The notes below the pieces were generated by a model. It had not been told where the DNA came from. It searched no databases and saw only the letters and a list, made by a program, of their open reading frames with translations. Below, in pieces: positions 6,257 through 14,244 of a stretch of 24,426 nucleotides of DNA. How positions within the stretch are numbered: position 1 is the first letter of the stretch; each line of letters begins with the position of its first letter. This DNA comes from a virus: positions 22,080 through 46,505 of IMG/VR virus record IMGVR_UViG_3300029309_000077; one strand, 5' to 3'. Both the position numbers and the translations under genes were made by a program.

Positions 6257-9200
6257 ATGACAGACTATACAGTACCTAATTTTACTTTCCAATCTACAGA
6301 AGAAAAGCCTGAGACTCCTCAGACTTTTAGATACTCTGTACCTACATTAGACATACCTATAACTAAAACTAAAGAGCCTAAACAAGCTTTCCAAAGTGTC
6401 TATGACTTTGAAAATGACCCTGACGTATTAAAAGATTGGGATATTGTAGCCAATGCTTTAAATAAAAAAGGTGATGAAATAGCTGAAACTCTTAGAGACA
6501 CTGAGTTTAATGTAGCACAATCTATGTATAGAGCATATCAAACAAATACAATTAATCAACAAGAAATAGATGCTTACAATAGATTACAAAAGAAATTTAC
6601 TAACACTGACCTATCAGGCTGGAATGAATATGCAGAACTAGTAAAAGATGCAGGTATTGATATAGCTTCTGACCCTTTTACTATAGTAGCACTTTTAGCA
6701 GCTCCTTTTACTGGAGGTACTTCTTTAGTAGCTAAACAGGCAGCTAGTAAAATAATATTAGAAGGTGCTAAAAGATATTCTTTTTCTCAGGCAGGTAAAG
6801 CTGCAGCAAGACCTGCAATATTTACAGCAGCAGAAGGTGCTACATGGGCAGGATTGCATAATTATTATAATCAAGATATAGATTTAGACTTAGGTAATAG
6901 AGAAGGAATAGATTGGAATGAAGTTAAAAATAATACTTTAATTGGTGGAGGTATAGGTGGAGTTTTTGGTTTAGGTGCTGGACTTTATAGTGGCACTAAA
7001 TATTTTAATAGAGCTTTTAGATATCACAACGAAGATAAAATTATTAAACAAACTGACGGTCTTTCTAGAAAAGAACTATTAGAAGCTGATGAGCTTACTA
7101 ATACAATTAAAGATAATCCATACGAAGGACTGGATGCTTCTAAACAATGGATAGATGCTGTTATATCTAAATTACCGTTTTTTGGTAAAGCCACAAGTGA
7201 GTTTCAAACTTTATCTAAATCATCAGAAACTTTAAAGAATTTTTTATTGGCTTTACGTTACGATGCTACTAGAACTACACTAGGTAAAAACAAATCTACT
7301 GACTCTATGAGTCTTTCATACTTTGAAGAACTTGATAAGTACATGGGTCAATATAAAGGCATTGGTATAGACAGAATTTTTAATAATTTAGGGTTCAAAG
7401 GTTTTAGTAGAAAAATAACAGCACAAGATAATGCAGGATTACTTCATTTAATGCAAACAGGCGGTCAAGCTAAAACATTTACTTATAGAAATAAAACATA
7501 CACTATATCTGATGACATTAAAAAAGCTTATTTTGGCGATAAAGATAAAGGTATAAAAGGAGTTCAAGGTTTATTAGATGATATGTTTGATGAAGGTAGT
7601 AAGTTAAGTGTATTTGAAAAGTTTGGTAAAGTTAAAAATTATTTTCCAAGATTATTTAAACATGGTTCATTAGAACAAAATAGGGAAGCTTTTAAAGACT
7701 TATTAATTAAATATGGCTACGCTAATCCAGATAACAAAATAAATGAAAAAAAATACTTAACTAAATATATAAATGCTGCAGGTGAAGAAGAAATGGGTAT
7801 TCCTGCAAATACATTAGGTAAAGATGAAGATGTATTTGGTAAAGGTACAGATTTTATTGCAGAAGCTAAAAAAAGATTATCTAATGATGCAACAGATGAT
7901 GATATTTTAAAAAAAGCACAAGAGTTAAAAGCTAACAGAATTATAGACAATATGCTTGACCTTAAATATTCACAATATAAAGTTGGTAGTATTCCAAATA
8001 TAGGTGGTGGTAAACCTTTTTTACAGCATAGAATATTTAATAATATCCCTGACACAGAACTAACTGCTATAGATGTAATTAATAACGATGTTATGGAAGT
8101 ATTAAATGATTACATATTAAATATGTCTCAAGTTTTAGCTCGTAAAAAATCGTTTGGAGTTAAAACTATAGAAGAGTTTCAAAAAAAATGGTTAAATCCT
8201 ATTGATGATGAGTTAAGTAGTTTAGGTGCTGCTAGAGGCGAAATAGATTCAAGTTTACAAGGTATAGAAAATTTATTTAGAGAAATAACTGGACTGTCTG
8301 AAGTTTACGGTGCAGATTTAGGTCAAAGAGGAATTATAGGTTCTTTTAAAAGAGGAGGTTCTGAAACTTTAAGATTAGTGCAACAAATGGCTCATTTAGG
8401 ATTTGCAACTTTATCTAGTATTACAGAGCCTTTAATATTATTTAGTAGAATAAATATGAAAAATTATCCTGAAGCTACTAAAAATATTTTAACAGGCATA
8501 GCTAAAGAAGTTACAAAAAACTTTGACCAATTAACAAAAATAGGAACTTCTTATATCCCAAAGAATACTCCCATTATAGGTAAATTTGGTGGTAAAAAAT
8601 CTTTTAAAGATGTAGATGATGAATACTGGAAAGAACTTTATCAAGGTAATTTAGCTATAGAAGATTCAATTTTAAATGGAGTTGATAGATTAGCTAGTGC
8701 TGATAGGTTAAGAAATAAATTTTTAAGAGGTGTGCAAAACACTTTCTTTAAAATGAATTTACTAACACAATGGACTCGTGCTGTTCAGGGTGCTGCTTTT
8801 ACTTCTGGTAAAATGTTAATTAGAGAAAATGCTAGAAAACTTTATGACGATGCAGTAGGTGTAAAAAAATTATCTACAGGTAGTTTTAGAAATCTAGGCA
8901 TGAATCAAAAAGAATATTTAGAAAGACAATTATTAGAACTAGGTATACAACCTAAAGATGCTATGAATTGGTATCGCAGTTCTTTAAACGATATATCTTT
9001 ATTTGACCAAAGTAAAGCTACAAAATCACCTTATTATAAAAATGTTTTACAAGGTGCTAAAAGATTTACTACAGAAATTATTTTAAATCCTAGTAAAGCT
9101 CAGGCTAATAGGTCTTTATGGTTAAATAATGGTACAGGCAAAATTTTATTTCAATTCGCAGGATATCCAACAGTGTTTAACAATACAATAATGAAAAGAA

Positions 9201-10321
9201 TGGTTAATGAATTAGTTAATTATCCAATGCAAGTTGGACCTAAAAATTTGATAACAGCTTTATTAATGACTACAGTAGCTATGAATAATAATTATTTAAG
9301 AAATCCTGATAGATATGAAAAAATTAGCGATACTGAAAAAGTTATAGAAGGAATTGAAAGATACGGTGGATTAGCTCAAGGTTCAGCAATTAAAAGAATG
9401 TATGATGCTAATAAATATGGTTCTGGTCCTATTGTATCTGTACTAAGAGGATTATTTGGTCCTGCTTTCGGTGATGCATTAGATACGGTTGAATATAGAC
9501 TTGGACCGACTACATTAGTTTATAGAAATTTACCTTTTAGTCAAGTACCTACTATCTTAATGACTGATGAGCAAAAGAAAAAACTTAATAAAACTCTTAG
9601 GGAATTTGATGAACGCTTATTTAATAATGAAGAAGAGGACACTAGAAAAGGCAGACCTAAAAAGCTAAAACTAACTACAGGTGGACTTGTAGAAGGACCA
9701 AAAGTTCCTAATACTATAGAGGACCCTGCAGACCGTATTAATCCTGAGACTGGTCAAACATACTCTGGTAAAGATGTTTTAGATTTAGAGATGGAAAGAC
9801 TAGGGTTTTCTAGAGGTGGTAATCCATTTGAAGAAATAATTAAAGCTACCACAAAAGCAGGGAATGTTAACACTATTGTAGACTATGGTAGAAATAATCT
9901 TGGTCTTCGTGACGAAGCTATTGCAGGAATATTAGGCAATATAGATGTTGAAACAGGTGGTACTTTTGATTATTTACAGAAACAAATAGGTGGTCCGGGA
10001 AGAGGGTTATTTCAATTAGACCCTTCTGGTCCTTTACCTAAACTATACGAAGAATTTAAATTAGAAAAAAATTTAAAAGACTCTCCAGAAGCACAATTAG
10101 ATTTTGTGCATGAAACTATATTTGGTGATAAAAAATATAGAGAAGTTATAGGATATGGTAATGCTAGAAAACTAAAAAAAATAATGACTGAAGGAACTCC
10201 AGCAGAAATATCTATTGAATTTATGAAAAGATGGGAAAAGCCAAGTAAGCCTCATACTCAAAGAAGAATAGAATCTACTAATAATATTTTTAAATTAATA
10301 AAAGATGCTAGTACTATATAG
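6257..10321 (+). CDS. Giant ejection protein with C-terminal phage lysozyme domain (gp16-like)
   Basis: 1354 aa, by far the largest protein. Residues 1-60 are Pro/Thr-rich. Two hydrophobic Gly/Ala-rich stretches (about 138-160, and 228-245 with GGGIGGVFGLGAGLYSG) could insert in membrane. A long helical body follows. Around residue 1140 is a linker (TTGGLVEGPKVP ... DPADRINPETG) of the kind seen in phage virion proteins. Residues about 1190-1354 form a phage-tail-lysozyme-like domain with AGILGNIDVETGG (Glu1232 as candidate catalytic residue) and GRGLFQLD. The family cleaves peptidoglycan during genome entry. In T7, gp16 carries a transglycosylase at the N-terminus; here the enzyme is at the opposite end. 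The 3' end overlaps the next gene by 17 nt. Confidence 0.85.
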   Translation: MTDYTVPNFTFQSTEEKPETPQTFRYSVPTLDIPITKTKEPKQAFQSVYDFENDPDVLKDWDIVANALNKKGDEIAETLRDTEFNVAQSMYRAYQTNTINQQEIDAYNRLQKKFTNTDLSGWNEYAELVKDAGIDIASDPFTIVALLAAPFTGGTSLVAKQAASKIILEGAKRYSFSQAGKAAARPAIFTAAEGATWAGLHNYYNQDIDLDLGNREGIDWNEVKNNTLIGGGIGGVFGLGAGLYSGTKYFNRAFRYHNEDKIIKQTDGLSRKELLEADELTNTIKDNPYEGLDASKQWIDAVISKLPFFGKATSEFQTLSKSSETLKNFLLALRYDATRTTLGKNKSTDSMSLSYFEELDKYMGQYKGIGIDRIFNNLGFKGFSRKITAQDNAGLLHLMQTGGQAKTFTYRNKTYTISDDIKKAYFGDKDKGIKGVQGLLDDMFDEGSKLSVFEKFGKVKNYFPRLFKHGSLEQNREAFKDLLIKYGYANPDNKINEKKYLTKYINAAGEEEMGIPANTLGKDEDVFGKGTDFIAEAKKRLSNDATDDDILKKAQELKANRIIDNMLDLKYSQYKVGSIPNIGGGKPFLQHRIFNNIPDTELTAIDVINNDVMEVLNDYILNMSQVLARKKSFGVKTIEEFQKKWLNPIDDELSSLGAARGEIDSSLQGIENLFREITGLSEVYGADLGQRGIIGSFKRGGSETLRLVQQMAHLGFATLSSITEPLILFSRINMKNYPEATKNILTGIAKEVTKNFDQLTKIGTSYIPKNTPIIGKFGGKKSFKDVDDEYWKELYQGNLAIEDSILNGVDRLASADRLRNKFLRGVQNTFFKMNLLTQWTRAVQGAAFTSGKMLIRENARKLYDDAVGVKKLSTGSFRNLGMNQKEYLERQLLELGIQPKDAMNWYRSSLNDISLFDQSKATKSPYYKNVLQGAKRFTTEIILNPSKAQANRSLWLNNGTGKILFQFAGYPTVFNNTIMKRMVNELVNYPMQVGPKNLITALLMTTVAMNNNYLRNPDRYEKISDTEKVIEGIERYGGLAQGSAIKRMYDANKYGSGPIVSVLRGLFGPAFGDALDTVEYRLGPTTLVYRNLPFSQVPTILMTDEQKKKLNKTLREFDERLFNNEEEDTRKGRPKKLKLTTGGLVEGPKVPNTIEDPADRINPETGQTYSGKDVLDLEMERLGFSRGGNPFEEIIKATTKAGNVNTIVDYGRNNLGLRDEAIAGILGNIDVETGGTFDYLQKQIGGPGRGLFQLDPSGPLPKLYEEFKLEKNLKDSPEAQLDFVHETIFGDKKYREVIGYGNARKLKKIMTEGTPAEISIEFMKRWEKPSKPHTQRRIESTNNIFKLIKDASTI

Positions 10322-10556: not shown

Positions 10557-10991
10557 GTGGGTTTTCCGTTTGAAATAATAACCATGCTTGGTTCCACTGT
10601 CCTTGGTGGAGTTATGAGCATTTGGGCTGATAGTAGAAAAGCTAAAGCTGAAGAACAGCAACTGTTAATTACACGAGGTAAGTTTCAGTTACAAGCTGTA
10701 GAAGCTGCAAGAAATGTAAAAGATAAAGGCTTCCAATGGACTAGAAGAATTATAGCACTGACTGCAGTTTTTTCTATTGTAGTCCTACCGAAACTTGTAG
10801 CTGTCTTTGCACCTGATGTATTAGTTACAGTTGGCTATACAGAATTTAAACCGGGCTTTTTATTCTTTACTAAAGATGTAGAGATATTTAAGTGGATAAC
10901 TTTTGAAGGCTTGGTAATTACTCAATTAGATACAAACTTAGTATCGGCTATTATCGGAATGTACTTCGGTGGTAGTTTAGTTAAAAAATAA
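10557..10991 (+). CDS. Three-TM holin candidate
   Basis: 144 aa with a GTG start directly after the preceding TAA and a strong GGAGG 7 nt upstream. There are three hydrophobic segments, at about 5-22 (FEIITMLGSTVLGGVMSIW), 64-87 (IIALTAVFSIVVLPKLVAVF) and 120-141 (LVITQLDTNLVSAIIGMYFG). A charged amphipathic helix lies between the first two (about 25-60). This layout and length match the three-TM holin-type proteins of phages and gene-transfer agents, which open the inner membrane at lysis. The holin assignment rests on topology, size and late-operon position. Its TAA overlaps the ATG of the next small gene. Confidence 0.7.
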   Translation: MGFPFEIITMLGSTVLGGVMSIWADSRKAKAEEQQLLITRGKFQLQAVEAARNVKDKGFQWTRRIIALTAVFSIVVLPKLVAVFAPDVLVTVGYTEFKPGFLFFTKDVEIFKWITFEGLVITQLDTNLVSAIIGMYFGGSLVKK

Positions 10992-11068
10992 TGGAGAAAC
11001 CAAAAACTATACAAGACATAATAGATGAGTCTTTAGCTTTGTGGGAAGACGAAGAAGATGGGGAGTGA
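10991..11068 (+). CDS. 25-aa acidic peptide
   Basis: Short frame MEKPKTIQDIIDESLALWED, ending with acidic residues and TGA at 11066-11068. Its ATG overlaps the holin stop by one base (TAATG), and its end overlaps the next start by 11 nt, so it fills an otherwise unexplained 66-nt gap. It is an amphipathic acidic helix with no TM. The tight coupling on both sides argues for translation. It could alternatively be just a spacer. Confidence 0.5.
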   Translation: MEKPKTIQDIIDESLALWEDEEDGE

Positions 11069-11342
11069 GTGGATAACAGTTGTAGAGACCATAGGGATAC
11101 CTGCAGTGGCAGCCCTTGGTTTAGGCTATCTTGTTTGGACTTTATTTAAGTCTTTGATTGCAGACATACACAAGAAGCTTGATACACAACATGCAATGAT
11201 AGTGGCTCTTATAGACCGTATAAGACAAATGGACAATGATATGATTCGTATAGATGCAATGTGTAGAGCAGCTATGGGATTAAAACCAGAAATAGATAGA
11301 ATAGCGAGGGCAGATGGACAAAAAGACCAACGTAAAGATTAG
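11058..11342 (+). CDS. Membrane-anchored coiled-coil protein next to the holin (spanin/holin-like)
   Basis: 94 aa with one TM segment (about 8-30, VVETIGIPAVAALGLGYLVWTLF) and then a charged helix with coiled-coil spacing (about 32-85). Its place after the holin candidate and before secreted or outer-membrane proteins is where i-spanins or accessory holins are often found. An outer-membrane partner spanin is not evident, but the CsgG lipoprotein two genes downstream is an outer-membrane protein in the same operon. It overlaps the CsgF gene by 29 nt. Confidence 0.65.
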   Translation: MGSEWITVVETIGIPAVAALGLGYLVWTLFKSLIADIHKKLDTQHAMIVALIDRIRQMDNDMIRIDAMCRAAMGLKPEIDRIARADGQKDQRKD

Positions 11343-11769
11343 TTTAATTTTACTTTTATTTTGTAGTAATTTAGTAAATGCAGACGAACTTCTTTTTTCT
11401 TTTAAGTTGCCTAGTTTTTCTGGTATCGGTGCTAGTGCACACTACCTTACTATAGAGAACCAAGAGTTTAATAGAAAAGAAGCTATCAAAGAAGAAATAA
11501 AAGCTTATCAAGAAGAACTAGAAAGAGAGGCAGACAACACTACACTTGCAAGGTTTATTAGAAACTTAGAGTCTAGAGTATACGCACAGTTATCCAGACA
11601 GCTTGTAGAAAACTTGTTTGGTGAGACTCCGAGTGAGAGTGGTAAGTTAGAATTGGAGGGAAATACAATAGAGTATGAAGTCGATGGAGATTACATTACA
11701 CTCACAGTCACTGACGAAGAGGGTGCAGTTACCGTTATTACTGTTCCTATCGGCAGTTTTACTTTCTAG
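11314..11769 (+). CDS. csgF: CsgF-like curli secretion adaptor
   Basis: 151 aa. A Sec signal peptide covers residues 1-23 (basic MDKKTNVK, hydrophobic ISLILLLF, cleavage after VNA). The mature start has F28-x-F30-x-x-P33-x-F35-x-G37, the same spacing as the E. coli CsgF N-terminus (FQFRNPNFGG) that inserts into the CsgG barrel. A helical neck follows (about 52-104, ending LSRQLVENLFGE), then a beta-rich domain (112-148, EYEVDGDYITLTVTD...). E. coli CsgF is surface-exposed and couples secretion to nucleation. Adjacency to csgG strengthens the call. The start codon has GAGGG close upstream. Its last 95 nt are also used by the csgG frame, encoding that protein's signal peptide. Confidence 0.9.
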   Translation: MDKKTNVKISLILLLFCSNLVNADELLFSFKLPSFSGIGASAHYLTIENQEFNRKEAIKEEIKAYQEELEREADNTTLARFIRNLESRVYAQLSRQLVENLFGETPSESGKLELEGNTIEYEVDGDYITLTVTDEEGAVTVITVPIGSFTF

Positions 11770-12535
11770 TTGCGTACATGATTATGGAGATTTGTTAAAC
11801 TCGGGAGGTGCTCCCGGTAAGGTTATAACTGCAGCTTCAATATTAGATTTACAGTCAGACGAACTGAAGAACTTACCGGCAGCTAAAAGACAACCTACTA
11901 TCGCTGTTTATGAAAACAGCTTCAAAGACTTTACAGGGCAAAGAGATAGTAACTCTAAGTTTGCTTTGTTTAGTACAGCTACTACACAAGCTCCAGAGGC
12001 TTTAGTTATTAGAGCACTAAAACATGCAGCTAATGGTAAGTTTTTTAAAGTTGTAGAACGTGTAGGGTTAGATAGTTTAACTAAAGAAAGACAAATAATT
12101 AGGTCCACAAGAGAAAACTTTGATGAGGACCAGCAGTTAAAACCACTGCTTTTTGCCGGAATATTATTACAAGGCGGTATAATTAGTTATGAAACTAATG
12201 AAAAGTCTGGTGGTTTAGGAGCTAGATACTTTGGTATTAGCTCAAGTAAACAGTATCGAGAAGATACAGTAACGATTTCATTAAGATTAGTTTCAGTCTC
12301 TACTGGAGAAATCTTGACAGAAGTATTAGTCTCAAAGTCTATATTATCTGTTAGCGTCAGCCACGATATATTTAGATTCTTTGAAGTTGGTACAAGACTG
12401 TTTGAGTTTGAGGGTGGTACTGCTCAGAATGAAAGCGGAGTTATTGCTTTACAAAAGGCGATAGAAACGGGGGTTTTAAAATTAATTAATATTGGAATAG
12501 AGAGAGGGTATTGGCAATATGAAGAAACTAATTAG
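11675..12535 (+). CDS. csgG: CsgG-like outer-membrane curli secretion pore (lipoprotein)
   Basis: 286 aa. The lipoprotein signal has a hydrophobic run (LPLLLFLSAVLLSSC) with the lipobox cysteine at 33. The CsgG core is clear: SVSTGEIL, YETNEKSGGLGARYFGI, KAIETGVLKLINIGIERGYW, and ERQIIRSTREN all align with E. coli CsgG. CsgG forms a nonameric outer-membrane channel for unfolded curlin. At the E. coli eyelet (Tyr51, Asn55, Phe56) only the Phe appears kept (F99 in FALFSTA). About 40 extra residues follow the lipidated Cys before the core. A TAG lies two codons before the ATG at 11675, so the gene cannot start earlier; a GTG at 11723 giving a shorter E. coli-like signal is an alternative. The 5' part overlaps csgF by 95 nt, the 3' end overlaps the curlin gene by 17 nt. 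Confidence 0.93.
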   Translation: MKSMEITLHSQSLTKRVQLPLLLFLSAVLLSSCVHDYGDLLNSGGAPGKVITAASILDLQSDELKNLPAAKRQPTIAVYENSFKDFTGQRDSNSKFALFSTATTQAPEALVIRALKHAANGKFFKVVERVGLDSLTKERQIIRSTRENFDEDQQLKPLLFAGILLQGGIISYETNEKSGGLGARYFGISSSKQYREDTVTISLRLVSVSTGEILTEVLVSKSILSVSVSHDIFRFFEVGTRLFEFEGGTAQNESGVIALQKAIETGVLKLINIGIERGYWQYEETN

Positions 12536-13223
12536 TATTTTATTTATAAGTGGAGCTGTTTGGGCTGCAGATAATGAAATATATGTAGACCAAAGTGGTG
12601 CTTCTTCTTCTATAGATTTAGAACAAATAGGTTCTGGTAATCTAATAGGAGGACTAAACGCTGCTGCAGGTAATATGACACCGTTAGATTTAGACGGTAC
12701 TAGTATGACACTAGATATTAACCAAATAGGAAGTAGTAATATTTTTAGAGGAGATATAACTGCAGATTCTTACACTGGTTACTTTAACTTTAGTGGGTCA
12801 TCAAATAACTTTACTATGCAAACAGACCCAACAAACACATACGGAGCTGATACTTCTGATGTGAATGTTGATGTAACTGGTAGTAGCAACACGTTTAGTT
12901 TGAATCAAGCAAATGCAGCTATGGCTTCAACACTTGATTTAGACTGGACTATAAATGGTTCTAACAATTCAGTGACTGCTGCTATAGATTACGACACTGC
13001 AACAAACTACATGGATATAGATGGTGATGATAACACAGTAACGCTAGACGCTGATGGCTATGCTGGAGGTTACTTTTATTTAGACCAGACAGGTAGCTCT
13101 AGAACTTTTAATGTTACACAACAAAGCACATTAGATAATGACTGGCTTAAAATACTTAGCACTGGCTCTAACGGTACTATTTGCGTCAACCAAGACGATG
13201 GCGGTACTGCAGTCGGATGTTAA
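12519..13223 (+). CDS. Secreted curlin-repeat protein (CsgA/CsgB-like)
   Basis: 234 aa. A Sec signal peptide covers residues 1-16 (MKKLISILFISGAVWA). The mature part has about nine strand-turn units with the curlin signature Q-x-G-x2-N-x5-Q in full or degenerate form: Q25/G27, Q36/G38/N41, Q69/G71/N74, G93/N96, G121/N124/Q130, G147/N150, G169/N172, Q190/G192/Q201 and G216/Q225. The turn is mostly G-S-(S/N/G)-N. Glycine spacing is usually 22-28. The mature protein is rich in Asp/Ser/Thr/Asn, nearly lacks Lys/Arg, and ends with two cysteines (222, 234). Placement behind csgF and csgG makes it the likely exported substrate, able to form an amyloid-like beta-solenoid. A tail-fibre identity is unlikely because of the signal peptide. 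The last 86 nt also encode the start of the FecR gene. Confidence 0.85.
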   Translation: MKKLISILFISGAVWAADNEIYVDQSGASSSIDLEQIGSGNLIGGLNAAAGNMTPLDLDGTSMTLDINQIGSSNIFRGDITADSYTGYFNFSGSSNNFTMQTDPTNTYGADTSDVNVDVTGSSNTFSLNQANAAMASTLDLDWTINGSNNSVTAAIDYDTATNYMDIDGDDNTVTLDADGYAGGYFYLDQTGSSRTFNVTQQSTLDNDWLKILSTGSNGTICVNQDDGGTAVGC

Positions 13224-14244
13224 TGTAGGAAATATTACAGAAGTAAATGGTGTTGGTCGTGTTGTTAGAGACCAAGAATATCAAGCACAGTTAGATTTTG
13301 ATATAAACAGTTACGATAATGTTCAGACTGCTAATGGCAGAATGGGCATAACCTTTATAGACGATACCACTATAAAGATTACAGAGCACTCTCAAGTTAT
13401 AATTGATGAGTTTGTTTTTGACCCTAATCCAGATAAGTCAAAGATGGCTCTAACCTTTGCCAAAGGAACTGCTAGGTTTATTACTGGTTCCTTAGGTAAA
13501 GTAAAAAAAGAAAATATAGTTCTAAGAACTAATAGTGCCACGATTGGTATACGTGGTACGGATTTTACGGTGACCGTTGATGAGCTAGGTAGGTCTTTGA
13601 TTATTCTACTGCCTCTAGCAGACGGTACTTCAAGTGGTGAAATAGTTGTTTCGACAGCAGCAGGTCAGGTTGTTCTCAACCAACCCTATCAGGCAACCAC
13701 AGCTTCGGTCTTTGAAGCCATGCCGACAAAACCTGTCATACTAGACATCACTTTAGATTTGATTGACAACATGTTGATTGTTAATCCTCCACAAGAAGAA
13801 CGATTAGAAACTGCTGAGTCTAGCAGTACTTCTAATTCTAATCTATTGGATGTTGATTTTTTAGAGTTTGAAGAACTCGATAAAGATTATTTAGAGGATG
13901 ATTTAGAGTTTACTGAGTTAGATGTTAACTATCTTGATGTAAACTTTTTAGAAGACTTATTAGATATCTTAGAAGAAATTGACGAACTAGAGAAAGAAGA
14001 AACCTCTAAAGTTAACGAAGTAGCAGTAAAAGGAACTCAGCTCGGTTTCGATGCAACTACACAAATAAATACGTTTATAACCGGTAACACGATTACTTTA
14101 CTTAGAAGTGTATCGGATACGGTTCGTGTGGATGCAGACAAGGGCGGGTCCTATACTATCTACTTAATACAAGATGGCAAGAGTACCCAAATAGTAATCA
14201 ATGGTGGTGGTGATAATACACTAACCATCAAACAACGAGATTGA
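13138..14244 (+). CDS. Secreted FecR-domain protein with acidic Leu/Asp segment and curlin-like C-terminus
   Basis: 368 aa. The signal peptide covers about residues 1-22 (cleavage after TKTMA) and lies wholly inside the overlap with the curlin gene. A TAG two codons upstream of the ATG at 13138 fixes this as the earliest start. A FecR domain follows (about 60-150: MGITFIDDTTIKITEHSQV, TFAKGTARFITGSLG, TNSATIGIRGTDFTV). Residues 236-288 are an acidic Leu/Asp/Glu segment with recurring DxxFLE/LDxxYL motifs. The C-terminus has curlin-like turns, Q345-D-G347-x2-T350 and N355-x-G357-x2-N360-x5-Q366. FecR domains are known as sigma-regulator sensors and as parts of secreted surface proteins. No sigma partner or cytoplasmic anti-sigma segment is present, so a surface or fibre-linked role is inferred. 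Confidence 0.85.
   Translation: MTGLKYLALALTVLFASTKTMAVLQSDVNVGNITEVNGVGRVVRDQEYQAQLDFDINSYDNVQTANGRMGITFIDDTTIKITEHSQVIIDEFVFDPNPDKSKMALTFAKGTARFITGSLGKVKKENIVLRTNSATIGIRGTDFTVTVDELGRSLIILLPLADGTSSGEIVVSTAAGQVVLNQPYQATTASVFEAMPTKPVILDITLDLIDNMLIVNPPQEERLETAESSSTSNSNLLDVDFLEFEELDKDYLEDDLEFTELDVNYLDVNFLEDLLDILEEIDELEKEETSKVNEVAVKGTQLGFDATTQINTFITGNTITLLRSVSDTVRVDADKGGSYTIYLIQDGKSTQIVINGGGDNTLTIKQRD

What the first reader, a model, noticed from the sequence alone, without database searches (positions are those of the whole stretch)
11314..14244. Curli-like secretion cassette (CsgF, CsgG, curlin-repeat protein, FecR-domain protein) in a phage late operon
Seen: CsgG core motifs and lipobox; the CsgF mature N-terminal F-x-F-x-x-P-x-F pattern; a secreted protein with Q-x-G-x2-N-x5-Q curlin turns; and a secreted FecR-domain protein, all contiguous and overlapping, directly behind a holin candidate and bounded by phage replication genes. 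Known: CsgG/CsgF export curlin amyloid across the outer membrane. Inferred: the phage makes infected cells display or release an amyloid-like fibre, or reuses the pore for another late task. I faintly recall single csgG/csgF-like genes in marine phage genomes (unverified). The full pore-adaptor-substrate-FecR set would be a dedicated phage system. No CsgE or CsgC was seen.
Basis: partly seen in the sequence, partly recalled or inferred. Interest (0 to 1): 0.9.

Follow-up and report, generated by a model that had tools for sequence, protein, structure and literature searches.

The report
Phage-borne curli secretion cassette
A virus that probably infects the ocean's most abundant bacterium carries a compact set of genes for pushing curli-like amyloid protein onto its host's surface late in infection; such viral cassettes have been published since 2020-2022, and this is one from a phage lineage that those papers, as far as read here, do not name.

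Summary
CsgF, CsgG and a FecR-domain protein pass curated Pfam cut-offs. The curlin protein alone does not, but its family alignment keeps a QxGxxN ladder, folds as a beta-solenoid (pLDDT 82), and its profile finds bacterial curlins beside csgG. The four genes are in order and contiguous in 72 of 73 assessable marine viral loci and under purifying selection.

It is not new as a kind. HTVC008M and Melnitz carry it, and PMC9599517 describes the CsgF-CsgG-CsgA/B-FecR cassette in podo- and myo-pelagiphages. The window's phage is HTVC103P-like. The isolate HTVC103P lacks the cassette at the same junction, so it is optional cargo at the end of the late operon.

Additions and corrections: (i) a 94-aa membrane protein upstream (11058-11342) is a fifth, cassette-specific gene, in 77 of 77 loci. 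It is probably the published 'histidine kinase', yet no kinase ATPase domain is found. (ii) The FecR protein is secreted and lacks anti-sigma parts. (iii) The cassette sits beside lysis or putative holin genes in 69 of 79 loci.

Best reading: a late-expressed minimal type VIII secretion system exporting a phage curlin. Its benefit is undecided.

The parts
11058..11342 (+). 94-aa single-TM, coiled-coil protein (phrog_18771, unknown function); first gene of the cassette; two tandem copies in many relatives
   Evidence: phrog_18771 E 1.1e-23; present in 77 of 77 loci with enough sequence upstream; among 50,697 phage records found only in HTVC008M and Melnitz, which carry csgFG; no kinase domain
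11314..11769 (+). CsgF homologue: signal peptide, F-x-F-x-x-P-x-F-x-G pore-binding N-terminus, C-terminal strand domain
   Evidence: PF10614 E 2.9e-17 over cut-off; alignment; dN/dS about 0.07-0.11
11675..12535 (+). CsgG homologue: lipoprotein signal (LLSSC), full-length outer-membrane pore subunit; start lies 95 nt inside csgF
   Evidence: PF03783 E 1.7e-48; its family profile hits solved E. coli CsgG at E 3.5e-63; invariant lipobox Cys33; dN/dS 0.07-0.14
12519..13223 (+). Secreted curlin-like repeat protein (CsgA/B position), predicted beta-solenoid
   Evidence: QxGxxN ladder, shuffle test, AF2 mean pLDDT 81.6, family profile finds bacterial curlins next to csgG at E 5.6e-6 and 4.5e-6; dN/dS 0.02-0.15
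13138..14244 (+). Secreted FecR-domain protein; signal peptide encoded inside the 3' end of the curlin gene; conserved C-terminal Y-x-x-x-x-Q ... GG ... I-x-I-x-Q tail
   Evidence: PF04773 E 4.8e-9, phrog_37870 E 1.6e-75, fold match to periplasmic anti-sigma domains 4m0h and 6ovk, tail alignment; dN/dS 0.10-0.23
10557..10991 (+). Holin-like membrane protein of the phage backbone, just upstream and not part of the cassette
   Evidence: Relatives at 65-69% identity in curli-free pelagiphages, some under a peptidase M15 annotation; the only cassette-neighbour profile that hits HTVC103P

Best explanation
It is a phage-encoded minimal type VIII (curli) secretion cassette, inserted as optional cargo at the end of the late operon of an HTVC103P-like podophage that probably infects SAR11. 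Late in infection CsgF, CsgG, the curlin and the FecR protein enter the periplasm by the host Sec pathway. CsgG forms the outer-membrane pore, capped by CsgF through its conserved N-terminal peptide, and the repeat protein is exported and assembles as beta-solenoid or amyloid material on the cell surface. The FecR protein is secreted and more likely a periplasmic or surface partner (anchor, nucleator, or ligand for the CHASE2 cyclase that many relatives add) than a transcriptional regulator. The likely pay-off is adhesion or aggregation of infected cells, ghosts or virions with nearby hosts, or surface masking. Shown: gene content, order, homology, selection, cassette boundary, lysis-module placement. 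Inferred: export, assembly, timing, benefit.
For: Pfam matches over cut-off; CsgG full-length with all segments of the solved pore; CsgF pore-binding N-terminus kept; curlin ladder, solenoid model and link to bacterial curlins. Pore, adaptor, substrate and FecR stay together in order in 72 of 73 loci, all under purifying selection. Only 2 of 197 genomes of the SAR11-type family have CsgG, both in phage-cassette contigs, so a host substrate is unlikely. Placement at the late-operon end and the empty site in HTVC103P. [quoted passage not shown]
Against: No CsgE, CsgC or CsgD found (for CsgE). The repeat protein is divergent, acidic, below Pfam's cut-off, and its model has no significant PDB match. 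No clumping was seen with Melnitz in culture (PMC9004378). No fibre has been imaged for any such phage in the papers read.
Confidence: 0.72

Rival explanations
1. The CsgG/CsgF pore is part of the lysis machinery: an outer-membrane hole or a pinholin/secretin analogue that times or finishes lysis, as proposed for Melnitz (PMC9004378).
For: A lysozyme, spanin, putative holin or a phrog_10198 membrane protein lies directly beside the cassette in 69 of 79 assessable loci (families); the upstream small membrane protein has a weak holin match in one relative (phrog_4898 E 0.0012).
Against: The curlin and FecR genes are retained with the pore and under purifying selection, which a bare pore does not need. 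Some cassettes sit beside complete Rz/Rz1 spanins and lysozyme, so CsgG does not stand in for them. CsgG keeps its lipoprotein signal for the outer, not the inner, membrane. Neighbourhood may only reflect the late operon as insertion site. Most of the 69 rest on membrane proteins whose holin role is itself inferred.
Confidence: 0.12
2. The pore is an uptake channel for cofactors, siderophores or nutrients during infection (PMC7029224, PMC9599517).
For: CsgE gate absent; a FecR domain recalls iron signalling.
Against: CsgF, curlin and FecR are always kept with CsgG; no FecI-type sigma factor in the own record; the FecR protein has no detected anti-sigma domain and no internal TM segment; placement with late genes.
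Confidence: 0.06
3. Same secretion mechanism, but the product acts as surface armour that blocks superinfection rather than as an adhesive.
For: Same as for the best explanation; proposed in PMC9599517.
Against: A late, pre-lysis position gives little time for exclusion; untested.
Confidence: 0.1

Closest known systems
Pelagiphage T8SS cassette (HTVC023P-type podophages and pelagimyophages; PMC9599517)
   Same: Same order: upstream small gene(s), CsgF, CsgG, CsgA/B-like, FecR; no CsgC, CsgD or CsgE reported
   Different: The window's phage is HTVC103P-like, a type not named in that paper's main text; lacks the second curlin and the cyclase; the upstream gene is not recognisably a histidine kinase
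HTVC008M and Melnitz curli genes (KC465899, MZ577097; PMC7029224, PMC9004378)
   Same: All five genes are homologous and in the same order
   Different: Those carry two copies of the upstream gene, a second curlin-repeat gene (with a PA14 domain in HTVC008M) and a cyclase (CHASE2 domain shown in HTVC008M); CsgG is 41-45% identical to the window's
Bacterial curli operons (E. coli csgBAC/csgDEFG; alphaproteobacterial csgF-csgG-curlin)
   Same: CsgF-CsgG pair next to curlin genes; pore fold; curlin repeats
   Different: In the five alphaproteobacterial operons examined here no relative of the phage FecR protein or of the 94-aa protein lies within about 6-8 kb
FecR/PupR anti-sigma signalling proteins
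   Same: FecR domain and periplasmic-domain fold
   Different: Starts with a secretion signal; no match to a cytoplasmic anti-sigma domain; no sigma factor found in the record

Membership tests
Type VIII (curli) secretion system | CsgG pore lipoprotein | tested here: met
   PF03783 E 1.7e-48; profile hits solved E. coli CsgG, E 3.5e-63; lipobox Cys invariant in 12
Type VIII (curli) secretion system | CsgF adaptor with pore-binding N-terminus | tested here: met
   PF10614 E 2.9e-17; F-x-F-x-x-P-x-F-x-G kept across the family
Type VIII (curli) secretion system | Secreted curlin-repeat substrate | tested here: met
   Single protein below Pfam cut-off, but conserved QxGxxN ladder, solenoid model and profile link to bacterial curlins; the Melnitz homologue passes the Pfam cut-off
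Type VIII (curli) secretion system | CsgE periplasmic gate | tested here: not met
   No PF10627 match in the 46.5-kb record. PMC7029224 says CsgE boosts but is not essential for curli in E. coli, so it is not a strictly defining part and its absence does not exclude function
Type VIII (curli) secretion system | Amyloid fibre on the cell surface | not testable with these tools
   Needs expression or infection experiments
FecR-type anti-sigma regulator | FecR domain | tested here: met
   PF04773 37.0 bits, cut-off 24
FecR-type anti-sigma regulator | Cytoplasmic N-terminal anti-sigma domain, TM segment and a partner ECF sigma factor | tested here: not met
   Only the FecR domain matched; the protein begins with a signal peptide; no Sigma70_r2 match in the own record or two podophage relatives
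Histidine kinase (published label of the gene before csgF) | HATPase_c domain | tested here: not met
   None in the own record, HTVC008M, Melnitz or two other cassette phages; the control found it in all 14 genomes. That the 94-aa gene is the one so labelled is inferred from position
HTVC103P-type pelagiphage | Terminase, DNA polymerase and late-operon synteny | tested here: met
   Best terminase matches HTVC103P, 104P and 115P at 63-65%; best polymerase match HTVC115P at 52%; backbone gene 10557-10991 at the same junction

The most novel reading that the evidence does not exclude
The cassette is a phage-specific redesign of curli secretion rather than a borrowed operon. It has a fifth obligatory membrane component that is not a kinase and a secreted FecR protein whose C-terminal curlin-like tail anchors or nucleates the fibre (a CsgB substitute), and it is fired together with the lysis genes so that amyloid is laid down just as the cell bursts.
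Probability: 0.25. Interest if true: 0.7.

Novelty: new member of a known kind. Interest (0 to 1): 0.4.

Why it matters
If these phages make SAR11-type cells, which have no curli genes of their own, display amyloid, infection changes how very abundant ocean bacteria stick to each other. The kind of system is known. This work defines the module's borders by an empty site, shows that an overlooked 94-aa gene is always part of it, and questions two published regulatory labels (histidine kinase, iron regulator), which changes which experiments are worth doing.

Tried and rejected
Direct membership of the window's curlin in Pfam Curlin_rpt: below cut-off. Fold search of the solenoid model against PDB: nothing at E <= 0.001, only generic beta-helices. 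Sequence search of the FecR and curlin proteins against PDB: no meaningful hit. Test that the FecR tail is a true curlin repeat: profile comparison aligns the Q-x-G motif but E 0.054, and 4 of 100 column shuffles score as high, so suggestive only. The genome-contig scan for bacterial donors returned only phage contigs binned into MAGs. A 'Salmonella phage' match (OR851715) is a 1.5-kb, 2x-coverage contig with an enterobacterial-type CsgG, treated as contamination. Terminator or promoter inside the cassette: no excess over shuffles.

Full report
Observation. CsgF, CsgG and the FecR domain pass Pfam's curated cut-offs. The curlin protein does not pass alone. Its repeat turns are in excess over shuffled sequence; across 21 relatives its invariant columns include a QxGxxN ladder; an AlphaFold2 model from that alignment is a regular beta-solenoid (mean pLDDT 81.6); and a profile of the phage family finds curlin proteins beside csgG in alphaproteobacterial genomes at E 5.6e-6 and 4.5e-6. 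The Melnitz homologue passes Pfam's curlin cut-off.

Recurrence. A scan of IMG/VR found 294 contigs encoding a relative of this CsgG; the best 80 were kept. Where all four genes are present, they are in order and contiguous in 72 of 73 loci. All genes are under purifying selection (dN/dS 0.02-0.23 in the four core genes).

Which phage. The record is 46.5 kb and linear. Its terminase is closest to HTVC103P, HTVC104P and HTVC115P (63-65%) and its DNA polymerase to HTVC115P (52%). PMC8528129 treats HTVC103P-type pelagiphages as a group of their own. In HTVC103P the backbone gene equivalent to 10557-10991 sits at the same convergent junction between late and early operons, followed only by small ORFs, and no cassette profile matches there. 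The cassette is therefore optional cargo, and its border lies between 10991 and 11058. In 31 of 45 loci with enough downstream sequence the cassette faces a convergent ribonucleotide reductase gene as here; 41 of the 80 IMG/VR loci also show a cyclase gene, which the window lacks.

The fifth gene. The 94-aa ORF at 11058-11342 is present in 77 of 77 loci with enough upstream sequence and among 50,697 phage records only in HTVC008M and Melnitz, twice in each. [quoted passage not shown] this identification is an inference. No HATPase_c domain exists in five cassette phages, while all 14 control genomes have one. It reads as one membrane segment followed by a coiled coil; one relative has a weak holin match.

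The FecR protein. It has a signal peptide and a FecR domain whose model resembles periplasmic anti-sigma domains (4m0h, 6ovk; E 8e-5 to 5e-4) and, more weakly (E 0.014), a cell-surface anchoring domain, 5ix9. The whole-protein model is of modest confidence (pLDDT 63). It has no detected anti-sigma domain and the record has no detected sigma factor. Its last 40 residues carry Q and GG positions conserved across podo- and myophages that look curlin-like, but a profile comparison is not significant.

Setting. A lysozyme, spanin, putative holin or phrog_10198 membrane protein lies directly beside the cassette in 69 of 79 assessable loci (families identified; many of the holin assignments are themselves inferred from topology and weak matches). 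This fits late expression. It does not by itself make the pore a lysis protein: some cassettes sit next to complete spanins and lysozyme, and the substrate gene is always kept.

Host. Only 2 of 197 genomes in the family of a Pelagibacter bin carry CsgG, both in contigs with the whole phage cassette. The substrate is therefore most likely the phage's own.

Literature. PMC7029224 (2020) reported CsgF and CsgG in pelagimyophages and proposed 'sibling capture'. PMC9004378 (2022) described the cluster in Melnitz, said it lacked csgA/B, saw no clumping and proposed a lysis role; but the GenBank record of Melnitz annotates curlin-repeat and FecR proteins. PMC9599517 (2022) described the CsgF-CsgG-CsgA/B-FecR set in podo- and myophages, its ocean-wide distribution and its expression in metatranscriptomes. 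The kind of system is thus known; this is a member in an HTVC103P-like lineage, with corrections to two gene labels. Supplementary files of the papers were not readable here, so an HTVC103P-like example may exist in them.

Noticed in passing
window 11675-11769 and 13138-13223: csgG starts 95 nt inside csgF, and the FecR signal peptide is encoded out of frame inside the last 86 nt of the curlin gene. The 86-nt overlap recurs in most podophage loci but is absent in HTVC008M (the genes do not overlap there), so it looks derived.
   Followed up: partly
L084 8462-9787 (HTVC008M): The second curlin-repeat protein of HTVC008M also matches a PA14 domain (E 2.7e-6), which suggests a sugar-binding adhesin fused to curlin repeats; the window lacks it.
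   Followed up: no
L087, L088, L089, L090, L099-L102, L119: Phage contigs with this cassette are binned into bacterial MAGs (Maricaulis, Flavobacteriaceae, Rhodobacteraceae, Pelagibacter); one Rhodobacteraceae bin has four CsgF matches, all on separate phage-cassette contigs.
   Followed up: partly
L086 (OR851715.1): A 1.5-kb record named Salmonella phage carries an enterobacterial-type CsgG at 2x coverage and looks like host contamination.
   Followed up: partly
L085 (Melnitz) 6692-9486: GenBank annotates two curlin-repeat proteins and a FecR protein in Melnitz, although the paper on it states that fibre genes are lacking.
   Followed up: yes
window 6257-10321: 1354-aa virion protein whose PHROG matches include an endolysin family; its C-terminus looks like a peptidoglycan-cutting domain just upstream of the lysis/cassette region.
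   Followed up: no
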